A DNA stretch of 48,623 nt, from assembly GCA_028876065.1 (NCBI GenBank), contig JAGWTI010000014.1, positions 1-48,623 on the forward strand, in the 5' to 3' direction. Made by a program: the position numbers and the translations under genes. Below the pieces are notes generated by a model, which saw only the letters and a program-made list of their open reading frames with translations, did not search any database and was not told the DNA's origin. This stretch comes from Nitrospirota bacterium (GTDB lineage: Bacteria; Nitrospirota; Nitrospiria; Nitrospirales; Nitrospiraceae). Positions 28,347-46,126 of the stretch are shown piece by piece; within the stretch, counting starts at the first letter, position 1; each line of letters opens with the position of its first letter.

Positions 28347-30067
28347 AAATCCCCCGCCGCCAATATGCAGACCTCTATGGGCCGACTGCCGGCGACCGGA
28401 TTCGCCTGGCCGACACGGAGCTGATCGTCGAAATCGAGAAGGACCTGACGACTCCGGGCGAAGAGGCCAAGTTCGGGGGAGGGAAGGTCATTCGGGACGG
28501 GATGGGCCAATCGTCTTCCGCGACCCGAGCCGGTGGTGCGCTGGACCTCGTGATCACGAACGCGGTGATCCTGGACCATTGGGGGATCGTGAAGGCGGAC
28601 ATCGGCATCAAGTACGGGCGCATCGCCGGCATCGGCAAGGCGGGGAATCCGGACCTGATGGACGGGGTGACGCCGGGTATGGAAGTCGGCGCCTCGACGG
28701 AGGTCCTCTCGGCCGAAGGCAAGATCGTGACCGCCGGCGGCATGGATACGCACATTCATTTTATCTGCCCGCAGATCATCCATGAAGGCTTGTCGGCCGG
28801 GCTGACCTCGCTGATCGGCGGAGGAACGGGACCGGCCACGGGGACGAACGCCACGACTTGCACGCCCGGCGCCTGGAACATCCACCGGATGCTGGAGGCG
28901 GCCGACGGCTTCCCCATCAACCTGGGGTTCCTCGGCAAGGGCAATTCGTCCCTGCCCGAAGGGCTCAACGAACAGATCGAGGCGGGCGCGATCGGGCTCA
29001 AGCTGCATGAAGACTGGGGCACGACGCCGGCCGCGATCTCCACGTGTTTGGATGTAGCCGAGCAGTACGACGTGCAAGTGGCGATTCACACCGACACGCT
29101 GAACGAAGCCGGGTTCGTCGAGGACACGATCAAGGCCTTTGCCGGCCGGACGATCCATTCGTTCCACACGGAGGGGGCCGGCGGGGGCCATGCGCCGGAC
29201 ATCATCAAGGTCTGCGGGGAGCCGAACGTGCTGCCCTCGTCCACGAACCCCACCATGCCCTTCACCGTCAACACGATGGACGAGCATCTGGATATGCTCA
29301 TGGTCTGCCACCATCTCAATCCCCGTGTGCCGGAGGATATCGCCTTCGCCGAGTCCCGCATCCGGCGGGAGACGATCGCGGCCGAGGACATCCTGCACGA
29401 CATGGGCGCGATCAGCATCATGTCGTCGGATTCGCAGGCGATGGGGCGGGTCGGAGAGGTGATCATCCGTACCTGGCAGACGGCGCACAAGATGAAGCTC
29501 CAGCGGGGCCGTCTCAAAGGGCCGGGCGAAGGGGCCGGCGTCACGCACGACAATTTCCGCGCGCGGCGGTATGTGGCCAAGTATACGATCAACCCCGCGA
29601 TCACCCACGGTGTCGCCCATGAGGTCGGCTCGGTCGAAGTCGGCAAGCTGGCCGATCTCGTGCTGTGGAAACCGGCCTTCTTCGGGGTCAAGCCGGAGAT
29701 CGTGGTCAAGGGAGGATTCCCCATGTCCGCGGCGATGGGGGACCCCAACGCCTCGATCCCGACGCCTCAGCCGGTTTTGACGCGTCCTATGTTCGGCAGT
29801 TTCGGGCGGGCTCTGTACAGTACGAGCCTCACGTTCCTCTCCCAGGCGGCGCTGGACCAGGAGGTTCCCAAGACCCTGGGCCTCCAAAAGCGGCTGGCCG
29901 TCGTCAAGAAGTGCCGCGGGATCGGCAAGCGCGACCTCAAGCTGAACGACGCGCTGCCCAGGATCGAAGTGGACCCGGAGACCTACGTGGTCCGCGCCGA
30001 CGGACAGAAGCTCTCCTGCGAGCCGTTGGCCTTGCTCCCGATGGCGCAACGTTACTTTCTTTTCTAG
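28343..30067 (+). CDS. ureC: urease subunit alpha (catalytic)
   Basis: UreC holds the dinuclear nickel site that hydrolyses urea to ammonia and carbamate. The 574-residue protein has the metal-ligand motif [12 protein letters not shown] (about 133-144), the carbamylated lysine in [12 protein letters not shown] (about 218), the mobile-flap region [13 protein letters not shown] with the catalytic His (about 320-332), and [14 protein letters not shown]. All active-site segments look intact. Its start overlaps ureB by four bases. Immediately after the stop a MITE-like repeat separates it from ureF. Confidence 0.99.
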
Positions 30068-40723: not shown

Positions 40724-41095
40724 ATGAGCAACCGGAGCTTGGGCTTCATCGTGCTGCTGTTGGGCATCACGGTCGGACTGGTGTTGACCAACCCGACGAT
40801 GCAGGACTATGTCGCCTTCCTGGAGCAACGGCTGGTTCTGAAACTGGACCAGAACCGGCAAGGCAAGGCTGGTCTCGTGGGGGCTCTGTTGGCCGCCCAG
40901 GGGCGGGAGGTGATCGAGGCCGTGATTCGGCCGAACACGATGCGTCGCAGCTATGGACTGTACAGCCTCTTTGAAACCAGTCTCCTGGGCGAGCAGGTCC
41001 TCGTGCTCGGGGTCGGAGGCTTTTTCATCCCCTTGCGGGGCCTCGAGCAAGTCACAAAAAAAGTTGAGGGGCTCGGCCTGCCGCCGGCCCGATAG
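40724..41095 (+). CDS. DUF4359-like membrane-anchored protein
   Basis: The 123-residue product has one N-terminal hydrophobic helix (LGFIVLLLGITVGLVLTNP, about 6-24) followed by MQDYVAFLEQRL. This TNP-X-DY-X-F pattern resembles DUF4359 proteins, whose function is unknown. The rest is an amphipathic domain with a hydrophobic LGEQVLVLGVGGFFIPL near residue 95. The ATG at 40724 follows GGGGGAAGGGAC. It is the last gene before the long nrdJ regulatory region. Confidence 0.65.
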   Translation: MSNRSLGFIVLLLGITVGLVLTNPTMQDYVAFLEQRLVLKLDQNRQGKAGLVGALLAAQGREVIEAVIRPNTMRRSYGLYSLFETSLLGEQVLVLGVGGFFIPLRGLEQVTKKVEGLGLPPAR

Positions 41096-41221
41096 GGCTT
41101 CGCAAGGGTGCTTTTGGGCCATAAGATCTGTTGATAAACGAGTCGAAATCCACGCGTTGACCGCATAGGAAGCGGCGATTTTTCTATCCACAGCCTTTCC
41201 CTCAAAATCAACAGGTCCCCA

Positions 41222-41263
41222 CAACATTTAGTATTGACAAACGCTTGGCTTCGCCATATATTG
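41222..41263 (+). promoter_or_regulatory. nrdJ promoter with two candidate NrdR boxes
   Basis: TTGACA (41234-41239) and TATATT (41257-41262) are 17 bases apart. CAACATTTAG (41222-41231) and CCATATATTG (41254-41263) match the NrdR-box core CWATATATWG at 8/10 and 9/10. Their centres are 32 bp apart, about three helical turns, the known arrangement of paired NrdR boxes. The second box covers the -10 element, so NrdR bound there would block RNA polymerase when dATP is high. Confidence 0.65.
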
Positions 41264-41268
41264 CGGTC

Positions 41269-41387
41269 CGTCCGGTTTTTTGAGGGGGCACTGCATGTTG
41301 AATGAGGGCCTCAGATGACGCGATCTGAACCTCCCAGACTCCCCGATCGGCCGGACGAACAGACAAGAGCAGGGGTTTCCTGAACAG
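41269..41387 (+). ncRNA. candidate structured RNA leader of nrdJ
   Basis: From the predicted transcription start, CGTCCGG (41269-41275) pairs with CCGGACG (41351-41357) to enclose a multi-stem region. Within it GAGG/CCTC (41304-41307 with 41330-41333) supports a TCAGAT/ATCTGA hairpin (41311-41316 with 41323-41328, loop GACGCG). A terminator follows at once. I see no cobalamin-riboswitch B12 box. It could be a leader regulator or a small RNA of about 160 bases. Confidence 0.45.
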
Positions 41388-41427
41388 AAGCGAACACGGC
41401 GAACTCCCGGTGTTCGCTTTTCTTTTT
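41388..41427 (+). terminator. intrinsic terminator inside the nrdJ leader
   Basis: AAGCGAACAC (41388-41397) pairs perfectly with GTGTTCGCTT (41410-41419), followed by TTCTTTTT. It lies between the promoter and the nrdJ start, 62 bases before the GTG, so full-length transcripts must read through it. Confidence 0.8.
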
Positions 41428-41488
41428 GGCGCCCAGGGCAGGCAGAACCTGAGTTTGGGTCCCATAACCGGTTAGGGGAGGAGATATT

Positions 41489-44400
41489 GTGAGGATTGAG
41501 CGACGATTTACGCAACGGGGGCAGAGTCCTTACCGGGACATGCCGTTCGCGAAGCGTTCCTCAGAGATCAAGAATCCCGATGGCTCTACGGTCTTTAAGC
41601 TCGACAACATCGACGTGCCCGAGCAATGGACCCAGCTCGCCGTCGATATCCTGGCGCAGAAATATTTCCGGAAGGCCGGAGTGCCCCAGGTCGGTCCGGA
41701 CGGGAAGCCTGTGTTCAACCAGGACGGCAAGCCGGTGCTGGGAGGCGAGCGGGACGCGCGGCAGGTCTTCCACCGGCTGGCCGGCTGCTGGACTCATTGG
41801 GGGAAGAGCCACGGCTATTTCACCAAGGAGGAAGACGCCTCCGCCTTCTACGACGAGATGTGCTACATGCTGGCGCGCCAAATGGCGGCGCCCAACTCGC
41901 CCCAGTGGTTCAACACGGGCCTGCACTATGCCTACGGCCTCTCCGGCCCGTCCCAGGGGCACTATTATGTCGATCCGAAGAGCAAGGAGATGGTCAAGGC
42001 CACGAACGCCTTCGAACATCCTCAGCCGCATGCCTGCTTCATCCAGGCAGTAGATGACGACCTGGTCAACGAGGGCGGGATCATGGACCTTTGGACCAGG
42101 GAGGCGCGGCTGTTCAAGTACGGGTCCGGCACCGGCACGAACTTCTCCAAGCTGCGCGGGGACAACGAGCCCCTCTCGGGCGGCGGGCGCTCCTCCGGCC
42201 TGATGTCCTTCCTCCGGATCGGCGACCGGGCGGCCGGCGCCATCAAGTCCGGCGGGACCACGAGGCGCGCGGCCAAGATGGTCTGCCTGGATTTGGACCA
42301 TCCGGACATCGAAGAGTTCATCGACTGGAAGGTGGTCGAAGAGCAGAAGGTGGCGGCCATGGTCACCGGCTCCAAGATCTGCGCGCAGCGGCTGAACGAG
42401 ATACTCCGCGCCTGCCATGTGCAGGACGGGAACGGGGCCACGCGGGTCGAGATCGATCCGGCGAAGAACGAGACCCTTAAACGGGCCATCAAGGCGGCCC
42501 GCCAGTCGGCCGTGTCGGAGGCGTACATCCAACGGATGTTCTCCTACGCCCAGGAAGGGTTCACCCACTTCGTCTTCCACGAGTACGACACGAACTGGGA
42601 CGGCAAGGCCTATCAGACCGTATCGGGGCAGAATTCCAACAACAGCGTGCGCATTCCCAACGGGTTCTTCGAAGCCCTGGAACAGGACGGGGATTGGGCG
42701 CTCAGACGCCGCACGGACGGCAAGGTCACCAAAACCGTCAAGGCTCGTGAGCTCTGGGACAAGATCGCCTGGGCCGCCTGGATCTGCGCCGATCCCGGCA
42801 CGCAGTACGACACCACGATCAACGAGTGGCACACCTGCCCGGAGGACGGGCCCATCAACGCGTCCAATCCCTGTGTGACCGGCGAGACGCTGGTGGCGAC
42901 CGTCGACGGTTGGCGGAGGATCGATGCGCTGGTCGGCAAGACCGTCCGGATTATCGGCGCGGATGGCCAACCGCACGTGGTCACGAAGGTGTTCCCGACC
43001 GGCCGCAAGCCGATCTTCACGTTGACCACCCGAGCCGGCTATCGTGTGCGCATCACCGGCGACCACCGGGTGCTCACGGTTGGCCGCGGCGATGTGGCGG
43101 TGCGGGACCTCACAGTGGAAGACCGGTTGTTCCTGCAGGGGCCGGGGTTTGGCCGGCGGACGATGCCGTCGGATTTGGCTCTGGGGGTCGGAGTGGCCAT
43201 CGGCGACGGCTGTCTCACGCGGTCGATGATTCGAGGACAGGAAGAAACCATCATCATCTTGTCCATGCATGCCGACGAAGCGACGGTCTTGGCCTCGATC
43301 GCTGAGGCGGTCAATGTCCAAAAGGCGGCCCTCAAAGCGGTCGGATCGATCGGGCGCAACGACGGGGTGAACGTGACGCGGAGCGCCACGGGCGCCAGGC
43401 TTTCGTTCGGTTCCCGTCCTGTGGTGGATCTGTTTCGCGAGCTGGCCATCCTGGACGAAGGCTCGGAGCGGAAGCGGTTCACGCCGGCCGTTTACGAGTT
43501 GGACAAGCAAGCTCTTGCGGCGGTCTTGCGCGGTCTGTTCACCGCGGACGGCACGGTCGCGCATTATGGGGAGAAATCCCAATACGTGGCCCTGGATTCC
43601 ACGTCGCTGGAACTGTTGCGACAGGTGCAACTGCTGCTCTTGTCCTTCGGGATCAAGGCCAAGCTCTATGAAAACCGCCGGGGTGGAAAGACCCAGGCGG
43701 TTCTGCCGGATGGGAAGGGCGGGATGCGATCCTATCCGGTTCGGGAGATGCACTCGCTCCGGATCAGTCGCTCTTCACGGTTCCTCTTCGAGCGGGAAAT
43801 CGGGTTCCATCCGGGCAGCCGCAAGGCCGAGGCTCTTGCGGAACTGAATGCCTCGGTCGGCACGTACCAGGACGAGCTGACGGATGACGTGGCTTCGATT
43901 GAGCCGGAGGGGGAAGCCGATGTGTTCGATTTGACCGAAGAAGCGACCCATCATTTCGTGGCCTCCGGGCTCGTCGTCCACAATTGTTCGGAGTACATGT
44001 TCCTGGACGACACGGCCTGCAATCTGGCCTCGCTGAACCTGGGCGAGTTCTACGAAACGGACGGCCAGTTCCGGCTGGACGATTTCCGGCATGCGGTGCG
44101 GCTCTGGACCATCGCGCTGGAAATCAGCGTGCTCATGGCCTCGTTCCCGAGCAAGGCCATCGCCGAAAAGAGCTTCATCTACCGCACGCTGGGGCTGGGG
44201 TACGCCAATCTGGGCACGGTGCTGATGCGGCAGGGGATTCCCTACGATTCGCCCAAGGCTCTGGCCATTTGCGGGGCGCTCACGGCGATCCTGACCGGCG
44301 AGTCCTATGCGGCTTCGGCGGAAATGGCGGCCGAGCTGGGCCCCTTCGACGGGTATGCGCGGAACCGCGAGCCCATGCTCCGGGTGATCCGCAATCATCG

Positions 44401-46126
44401 GCGGGCCGCCTACCATGCGGTGCCGGAAGAATACGAGGGGCTGACGATCAAGCCGCAGGGCATTCAGCCGGAACATTGCCCGCCGGACCTGTTGATCGGA
44501 GCGCGGCGGGCCTGGGACAAGGCGCTGGAACTGGGCACGGCCTATGGGTTCCGCAACGCGCAGGTCACGTGCATTGCCCCGACCGGTACGATCGGCCTGG
44601 TCATGGACTGCGATACGACCGGGATCGAGCCGGACTTCGCCCTGGTCAAATTCAAGAAGCTGGCCGGCGGCGGCTACTTCAAGATCATCAACCAGAGCCT
44701 CCCGCCGGCGCTGGCCACGCTCGGGTACAACGAGGCGCAGATCCAGGAGATCGTCACCTTTTGCACCGGCCGCCGGACCTTGAAGGGGGCGCCGTTCATC
44801 AACCACGAGACCCTGCAGGCCAAAGGCTTCGACGGGGCGGCGCTGGACCGGCTGGAAGCGGGCCTGGGCCAAGCCTTCGAAATCCAGTTCGCGTTCAACA
44901 AGTGGACCTTGGGCGAGGAATTTTGCCGCGAGAAGCTGGGCCTGACCGACGCGCAGCTCAACGAGCCGAATTTCAACATGCTCAAGGCGCTGGGGTTCGC
45001 CCAGGAGCAGATCGTGGTGGCCAACGACTATTGTTGCGGCACGATGACGATCGAGGGGGCGCCGCACCTGAAGGCGGAGCATCTCCCGGTCTTCGATTGC
45101 GCCAATCGCTGCGGCCGTACGGGCCAGCGGTTCATCGCCGTGGACGCCCACATTCGGATGATGGCGGCGGCGCAGCCCTTCATCAGCGGGGCGATCAGCA
45201 AGACCATCAATATGCCGGCGGACGCGACGGTGGAAGACGTGAAAGCCTCCTACCTGTTGTCCTGGCACTCGATGGTCAAGGCGGTGGCCTTGTACCGGGA
45301 CGGCTCCAAGCTCAGCCAGCCGCTCAATGCCGCGTCGGACTCGGGCGAATTGGCCGAGGCCGTGGCCGGCGGGGACGTGTTGCAGGCGGCGGAAAAGATC
45401 ACCGAACGGGTGCTCGTCCGGTACCTGGCCAGGCGGAGGCGGATGCCGGAGCGGCGGAAGGGGTATACGCAGAAGGCCATCGTGGGCGGCCATAAGATCT
45501 ATCTGCGGACCGGCGAGTACAGCGACGGGACCGTGGGCGAGATCTTCCTGGACATGCACAAGGAAGGGGCGGCCTTCCGCAGCCTCATGAACTGCTTCGC
45601 GATCGCCATCTCCCTGGGGCTCCAGCACGGGGTGCCGCTGGAAGAGTTCGTCGAGGCGTTCGTGTTCACCCGGTTCGAGCCCAACGGGCCGGTCAAGCTC
45701 AACGACCGGATCAAGATGTCCACGTCGATCATCGACTACATCTTCCGCGAGCTGGCCATCACCTATCTGGGCCGTCACGATCTGGCGCAAGTGGTGCCGG
45801 AAGACTTGCGCATGGACTCGGTCAAGAAGGACGCCCAGGACCCGGCCACGATGGAAGGGGAGGAGGCGGACCCGCAAGCCCTGGCCTCGTCGTCGATCAG
45901 CACGGACATGTTCCCCGCCAGGCGCGAGAACGGCAACGGCGGCAACGGGGCCCTGGCGCACAAGCTGGAGTTGAAGCGCGAGACCCTGACCTATACGACC
46001 GTCGAACTGGCCCGCTTGAAAGGTTACGAAGGGGATCCCTGTCAGAACTGCAAAGAGTTCACGCTGGTGCGCAACGGCACATGCCTCAAGTGCATGAACT
46101 GCGGCGCCACGAGCGGTTGCTCCTGA
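41489..46126 (+). CDS. nrdJ: adenosylcobalamin-dependent ribonucleotide reductase (class II) with intein
   Basis: NrdJ reduces ribonucleotides to deoxyribonucleotides with a B12-generated thiyl radical, independent of oxygen. The 1545-residue precursor contains a 371-residue intein, leaving a 1174-residue enzyme. Extein landmarks: [14 protein letters not shown] (about 135), [27 protein letters not shown], the catalytic triad N-P-C-S-E formed on splicing (Asn460, Cys833, Glu835 in the precursor), [20 protein letters not shown], and a C-terminal Cys tail ([20 protein letters not shown]). AGGGGAGGAG precedes the GTG start. It is followed by a small PD-(D/E)XK-like protein. Confidence 0.97.
42872..43984 (+). 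other. intein with LAGLIDADG homing endonuclease inside NrdJ
   Basis: Codons 462-832 form an in-frame intein. Block A is [17 protein letters not shown], with Cys1 as splice nucleophile. Block B is [11 protein letters not shown]. The C-terminal blocks are [14 protein letters not shown], ending in the required His-Asn, and the +1 residue is Cys. Two dodecapeptide motifs, [12 protein letters not shown] and LRGLFTADG, mark a DOD-type homing endonuclease. All splicing residues appear intact. It interrupts the NPCSEY motif of the reductase. Confidence 0.95.

What the first reader, a model, noticed from the sequence alone, without database searches (positions are those of the whole stretch)
41269..41427. 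Structured RNA leader ending in a terminator ahead of nrdJ
The stretch from the predicted transcription start to the leader terminator is about 160 bases, with a closing stem, an internal hairpin and a strong terminator 62 bases before the start codon. This fits a termination-controlled leader or an independent small RNA. I recall a reported candidate 'nrdJ RNA motif' upstream of such genes, but cannot confirm a match. A ligand such as adenosylcobalamin or a nucleotide is plausible but unproven.
Basis: partly seen in the sequence, partly recalled or inferred. Interest (0 to 1): 0.7.

Follow-up and report, generated by a model that had tools for sequence, protein, structure and literature searches.

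The report
Translated leader attenuator before nrdJ
In Nitrospira-like bacteria the gene for the only DNA-building-block enzyme is preceded by a tiny coding sequence that ends right against a transcription stop signal, which suggests that active protein synthesis is needed to let the gene be read.

Summary

Its stop codon sits 2 nt before the terminator hairpin. Upstream of nrdJ in nine Nitrospiraceae genera (one to four genomes each) an ORF of 22-31 codons ends 0-4 nt before an intrinsic terminator. In shuffled leaders this occurs at p 0.06-0.28 each; 10 of 11 leaders show it (P about 1e-8; relatedness ignored). Ordinary gene-end terminators there lie 25-94 nt away (n=9).

The peptide itself is only weakly conserved, so translation, not the product, probably matters. 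Ribosomes near a stop codon repress terminators this close in E. coli (PMC4824070).

Best explanation: an NrdR-controlled promoter followed by a ribosome-coupled attenuator of the pyrBI kind, on the genome's only detected RNR. Not shown: transcription, uORF translation, and regulation. The physiological signal is unknown.

The parts
41219..41234 (+). NrdR-box-like palindrome 1 (CCACAACATTTAGTAT)
   Evidence: 12/16 to the published NrdR-box consensus; pair spacing 32 bp; pair score not reached in 2000 shuffles; 112/124 relatives have their best pair at 31-32 bp
41251..41266 (+). NrdR-box-like palindrome 2, overlapping the -10 (TCGCCATATATTGCGG)
   Evidence: 11/16 to consensus; NrdR gene present in the genome
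41234..41262 (+). sigma-70-type promoter TTGACA-17-TATATT
   Evidence: conserved in relatives
41269..41357 (+). long-range closing stem P1 (41269-41275 with 41351-41357), pairing the RNA 5' end with codons 13-15 of the leader ORF
   Evidence: MFE; no covariation inside the genus; similar long-range pairing with different sequence in several other genera, combined support modest
41304..41308 (+). Shine-Dalgarno GAGGG of the leader ORF, pairing with CCTC 41330-41333
   Evidence: anti-SD dG -6.1; pairing in MFE
41311..41328 (+). hairpin P2 TCAGAT/ATCTGA around the leader start codon
   Evidence: pattern kept in g1, g12, g20, g22, not in g2, g3, g7, g13, g19, g21
41315..41383 (+). leader ORF, 22 codons, MTRSEPPRLPDRPDEQTRAGVS*
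   Evidence: stop codon 2 nt before the terminator hairpin
41386..41427 (+). intrinsic terminator (attenuator)
   Evidence: z -4.38, 0/200 shuffles; arms invariant in 4 genus members
41489..46126 (+). nrdJ, adenosylcobalamin-dependent class II RNR, with intein
   Evidence: NF005736, TIGR02504

Best explanation
A translation-coupled transcription attenuator under an NrdR-controlled promoter. RNA polymerase starts near 41269, at a promoter overlapped by two NrdR boxes, and transcribes a short leader ORF. If a ribosome loads on the leader ORF and follows the polymerase, it reaches the stop codon 2 nt before the terminator and its footprint keeps the hairpin from folding, so transcription runs into nrdJ. 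If the ORF is not translated in time, the terminator forms and transcription ends. The 5'-end stem P1 and the hairpin that pairs the SD (GAGG with CCTC) would limit ribosome loading and set the threshold. Shown by sequence: promoter, boxes, ORF, stop abutting terminator, recurrence in nine genera. Inferred: transcription, translation, antitermination, and the signal (probably translational capacity or growth rate).
For: Stop codon 0-4 nt before an intrinsic-terminator hairpin upstream of nrdJ in nine genera: g1 (4 genomes), g2, g3, g7, g12, g13, g20, g21, g22. Against dinucleotide shuffles that keep the terminator-proximal 8 nt: 10/11 leaders, P about 1.2e-8; with SD required 7/11, P about 1.2e-5. 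All 9 ORFs are open in their own frame, against 5 and 1 in the other two frames. Background: 9 gene-end terminators in about 848 kb of related genomes, 25-94 nt from the stop, none within 20 nt. Peptide sequence drifts freely, as expected if only translation matters. In E. coli, terminators several bp from a stop codon are almost fully repressed; moving the stop from 28 to 5 bp cut termination efficiency from about 90% to under 10%, and abolishing translation restored termination (PMC4824070). pyrBI works by such coupling (PMC5021804). No promoter-like site between terminator and nrdJ. NrdR gene present.
Against: No expression data. In G167 the frame is broken and the ORF runs past the terminator. 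In G002 the SD-led ORF stops 17 nt short. The starts in G001, G016 and G173 lack a clear SD. The lineages share ancestry, so the P value is too small. The attenuator is absent from Nitrospira proper. It is not known whether transcription and translation are coupled in these bacteria.
Confidence: 0.55

Rival explanations
1. A small-protein gene with its own terminator: the 22-31 aa peptide acts in trans, and nrdJ is fed by leaky readthrough of the same promoter.
For: Recurring N-terminal MxxSEP and a QxD motif in five genera; SD-led ORF in several genera.
Against: Mostly nonsynonymous differences within the genus (1 synonymous against 6-8 nonsynonymous codons); C-terminal half and length not conserved. 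Stops directly against terminators are not seen at ordinary genes here.
Confidence: 0.2
2. A metabolite-binding riboswitch (nucleotide or adenosylcobalamin) that controls the terminator directly.
For: Predicted long-range stem and hairpin; nrdJ needs adenosylcobalamin.
Against: No Rfam match, although four cobalamin riboswitches are found elsewhere in the genome. No compensatory changes in the genus. The hairpin is absent from half of the genera with the layout. Cobalamin repression of the only detected RNR would make little sense.
Confidence: 0.12
3. An independent terminated small RNA that shares the promoter of nrdJ.
For: Promoter and terminator bound a unit of about 160 nt.
Against: No conserved single-stranded core: the leader finds full-length DNA relatives only in the same genus. 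It does not explain the in-frame stop at the terminator in nine genera.
Confidence: 0.08

Closest known systems
pyrBI (pyrL) attenuator of E. coli
   Same: Translated leader ORF, intrinsic terminator, ribosome close behind the polymerase prevents termination; also a nucleotide-metabolism gene (PMC5021804, PMC4824070).
   Different: pyrBI relies on UTP-sensitive pausing sites; no such sites are identified here. As I recall, the pyrL ORF runs through its terminator, whereas here the ORF ends just before it. No sequence relation; NrdR boxes here.
E. coli ampC growth-rate attenuator (from memory; no open paper found that describes it)
   Same: Ribosome loading on a minimal ORF next to a leader terminator would give readthrough at high growth rate.
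   Different: The ampC mini-ORF is essentially start-stop, as I recall; here it has 22-31 codons and a predicted SD-sequestering hairpin.
Amino-acid biosynthesis leader-peptide attenuators (trp, his type)
   Same: Leader peptide followed by a terminator.
   Different: Those keep the terminator more than 20 bp from the leader stop (PMC4824070); here 0-4 nt. No run of one regulatory codon.
nrdJ RNA motif (Rfam; reported in Streptomyces, PMC8388888)
   Same: Named for the same gene.
   Different: No match by covariance model up to E = 10.
NrdR regulon
   Same: Two NrdR boxes about three helical turns apart at an RNR promoter.
   Different: None; an ordinary member. The leader attenuator is the addition.

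Membership tests
Translation-coupled (pyrBI-type) transcription attenuator | Intrinsic terminator between promoter and structural gene | tested here: met
Translation-coupled (pyrBI-type) transcription attenuator | Leader ORF placed so that a ribosome at its end overlaps the terminator | tested here: met
   stop 0-4 nt from the hairpin in nine genera
Translation-coupled (pyrBI-type) transcription attenuator | Leader ORF is translated, and its translation reduces termination | not testable with these tools
   needs reporter or ribosome profiling data
Amino-acid leader-peptide attenuator | Enriched regulatory codons for one amino acid | tested here: not met
   peptides read by eye; no shared run of one residue
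nrdJ RNA motif (Rfam) | Match to the covariance model | tested here: not met
   gathering threshold, E up to 10; that Rfam holds the model is inferred from PMC8388888
Cobalamin riboswitch (RF00174) | Match to the covariance model | tested here: not met
   no hit at nrdJ; four hits elsewhere in the genome
NrdR regulon | Pair of NrdR boxes an integral number of helical turns apart at the promoter, NrdR in the genome | tested here: met
   consensus and pairing rule from PMC4009431
Riboswitch in general | Conserved, covarying aptamer fold | tested here: not met
   0 compensatory pairs in four genus members, a small sample; hairpin lost in half of the genera

The most novel reading that the evidence does not exclude
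The SD-sequestering leader fold is itself a sensor (for a nucleotide, AdoCbl or a protein) that gates translation of the leader ORF, and ORF translation in turn gates the terminator: a riboswitch acting through a leader ORF on the genome's only detected ribonucleotide reductase.
Probability: 0.08. Interest if true: 0.85.

Novelty: new member of a known kind. Interest (0 to 1): 0.52.

Why it matters
I found no report of a leader-peptide attenuator on a ribonucleotide reductase gene in the searchable library. If true, it would couple supply of DNA precursors to translational capacity, on top of NrdR's dNTP feedback, in slow-growing bacteria that depend on a single B12-dependent RNR. It also gives a sequence signature (ORF stop abutting a leader terminator) that can be searched for at other genes.

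Tried and rejected
Rfam scan of the leader: nothing relevant. Within-genus covariation of P1, P2 and terminator: no informative changes. Peptide under purifying selection: weak; mean BLOSUM62 1.85 in frame against 1.25 and 0.63 in the other frames, but mostly nonsynonymous differences. Long-range 5'-end pairing by shuffled duplex: individually p 0.01-0.6 among the leaders with a terminator; my own Fisher combination, done by hand, is about 0.01. A DNA operator reading of TCAGAT-N6-ATCTGA was rejected because the flanking GAGG/CCTC are asymmetrically spaced. Anti-terminator pairing: by eye only G016 shows a 9-bp match between the RNA 5' end and the terminator arm; not general. First attempt at a background of stop-terminator distances was spoiled by spurious ORFs and loose hairpins and was replaced by a stricter scan. 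The viral-contig scan gave only one distant nrdJ.

Full report
WHAT WAS CLAIMED.

The stems and terminator are at the stated coordinates. The promoter TTGACA-17-TATATT at 41234-41262 is the only promoter-like match in 41000-41600. The terminator is well beyond chance (-17.9 kcal/mol, z -4.38, 0/200 shuffles). The rest of the leader is only mildly more stable than shuffles (z -1.55, 18/200). The downstream gene is nrdJ, a B12-dependent class II RNR interrupted by an intein. In this genome it is the only RNR found: no class I beta subunit and no class III enzyme, in a genome rated 100% complete.

THE PROMOTER IS NRDR-TYPE. Two NrdR-box-like palindromes lie 32 bp apart, at 41219-41234 and 41251-41266, the second over the -10. 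The best pair is spaced 31-32 bp in 112 of 124 distinct nrdJ upstream regions of Nitrospirales. The genome encodes NrdR. This part is ordinary; the NrdR-box consensus and pairing rule come from PMC4009431.

NOT A KNOWN RNA FAMILY. Rfam at gathering threshold and down to E = 10 on 41000-41700 gave nothing relevant. PMC8388888 reports Rfam hits for the nrdJ RNA motif in Streptomyces, from which I infer that the library holds it. Four cobalamin riboswitches exist elsewhere in this genome, none at nrdJ.

COVARIATION. Full-length DNA relatives of the leader exist only in three genomes of the same genus (83-87% identity). In their alignment no pair of any helix shows a change on both sides, and the closing stem has two broken pairs in G171. 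Across genera, the RNA 5' end pairs with the middle of the leader ORF in most predicted folds, with unrelated sequence (for example CCGGctaCTGGCTCTC/GAGAGCCAGCCGG in G174), but the support is modest.

Inside the leader is an ORF, 41315-41383: SD GAGGG, 6-nt spacer, ATG, 22 codons (MTRSEPPRLPDRPDEQTRAGVS), TGA. The stop is 2 nt before the terminator hairpin. I collected nrdJ upstream regions from all 175 genomes of the family plus order members. Terminators in the leader occur in 14 of the distinct leaders examined, from nine genera. In these an ORF of 22-31 codons ends 0-4 nt before the terminator: own genus (4 genomes), g2 (G001), g3 (G005), g7 (G009), g12 (G014), g13 (G016), g20 (G169), g21 (G173), g22 (G174). 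Exceptions: G167 (frame broken) and G002 (its SD-led ORF stops 17 nt before).

IS THAT CHANCE? I shuffled each leader with dinucleotide content kept and the last 8 nt before the hairpin fixed, so any stop triplet there stays. An ATG-led ORF of at least 18 codons ending within 5 nt of the hairpin arises in 6-28% of shuffles per leader; it is observed in 10 of 11 (P about 1e-8). With an SD required, 7 of 11 (P about 1e-5). Relatedness makes these values too small, and the starts in G001, G016 and G173 lack a clear SD. The nine ORFs are open in their own frame, against five and one in the other two frames. As background, a stricter scan of about 848 kb from six sources (the window and five relatives) found 9 intrinsic terminators near gene ends, 25-94 nt from the stop and none within 20 nt. 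The sample is small, but abutting stops are not the habit of these genomes.

WHAT IS SELECTED. Within the genus, codon differences in the ORF are mostly nonsynonymous. Between genera a short N-terminal motif MxxSEP and a QxD motif recur, but the rest drifts and length varies. MxxSEP coincides with the hairpin and with the CCTC that pairs with the SD, so RNA constraint may explain part of it. The constant features are the presence of an ORF and the position of its stop.

MECHANISM. In E. coli, a terminator several bp after a stop codon is almost fully repressed by the translating ribosome. Moving a stop from 28 to 5 bp before the terminator cut termination from about 90% to under 10%, and uncoupling translation abolished the effect. 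Classical amino-acid attenuators keep their terminators more than 20 bp away (PMC4824070). The pyrBI leader uses such coupling (PMC5021804). The nrdJ leaders, at 0-4 nt, fall in the repressed range. I therefore propose that translation of the leader ORF allows readthrough into nrdJ and its failure ends transcription. Pairing of the SD with CCTC would set the threshold. Anatomy and recurrence are shown; expression, coupling in these bacteria and the physiological signal are not.

DISTRIBUTION. On a NrdJ tree the attenuator leaders sit among the lineages outside Nitrospira proper; a single origin is not excluded, and Nitrospira proper lacks it (support values are mostly weak).

NOVELTY. No paper found in the library describes leader-peptide attenuation of a ribonucleotide reductase gene. 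The kind of mechanism is known; the gene and this family of leaders appear new.

Noticed in passing
41050-41220 and nrdJ upstream regions of relatives: DnaA-box-like 9-mers (TTWTNCACA) lie within 420 nt upstream of nrdJ in 110 of 123 Nitrospirales regions (stricter set 106, about 1.3 expected from shuffles); the window itself has only near matches at 41129 and 41185.
   Followed up: partly
41489-46126: nrdJ carries an intein (about residues 462-830). Several relatives (for example G174) have their nrdJ match split within the first 437 residues; in G174 an intein-like insert is visible there.
   Followed up: no
28489-28784 (-): Rfam match to 5_ureB_sRNA (RF02514), 74.5 bits, above gathering score.
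   Followed up: no
L015 (G016): The RNA 5' end GGCCCGCTA is exactly complementary (9 bp) to the 5' arm of the leader terminator TAGCGGGCC, a possible anti-terminator seen by eye in this genome only.
   Followed up: partly
L117 (G110), -113..-67: A hairpin plus T-run also lies in the nrdJ leader of one Nitrospira-like genome (g16) without an obvious abutting leader ORF.
   Followed up: no
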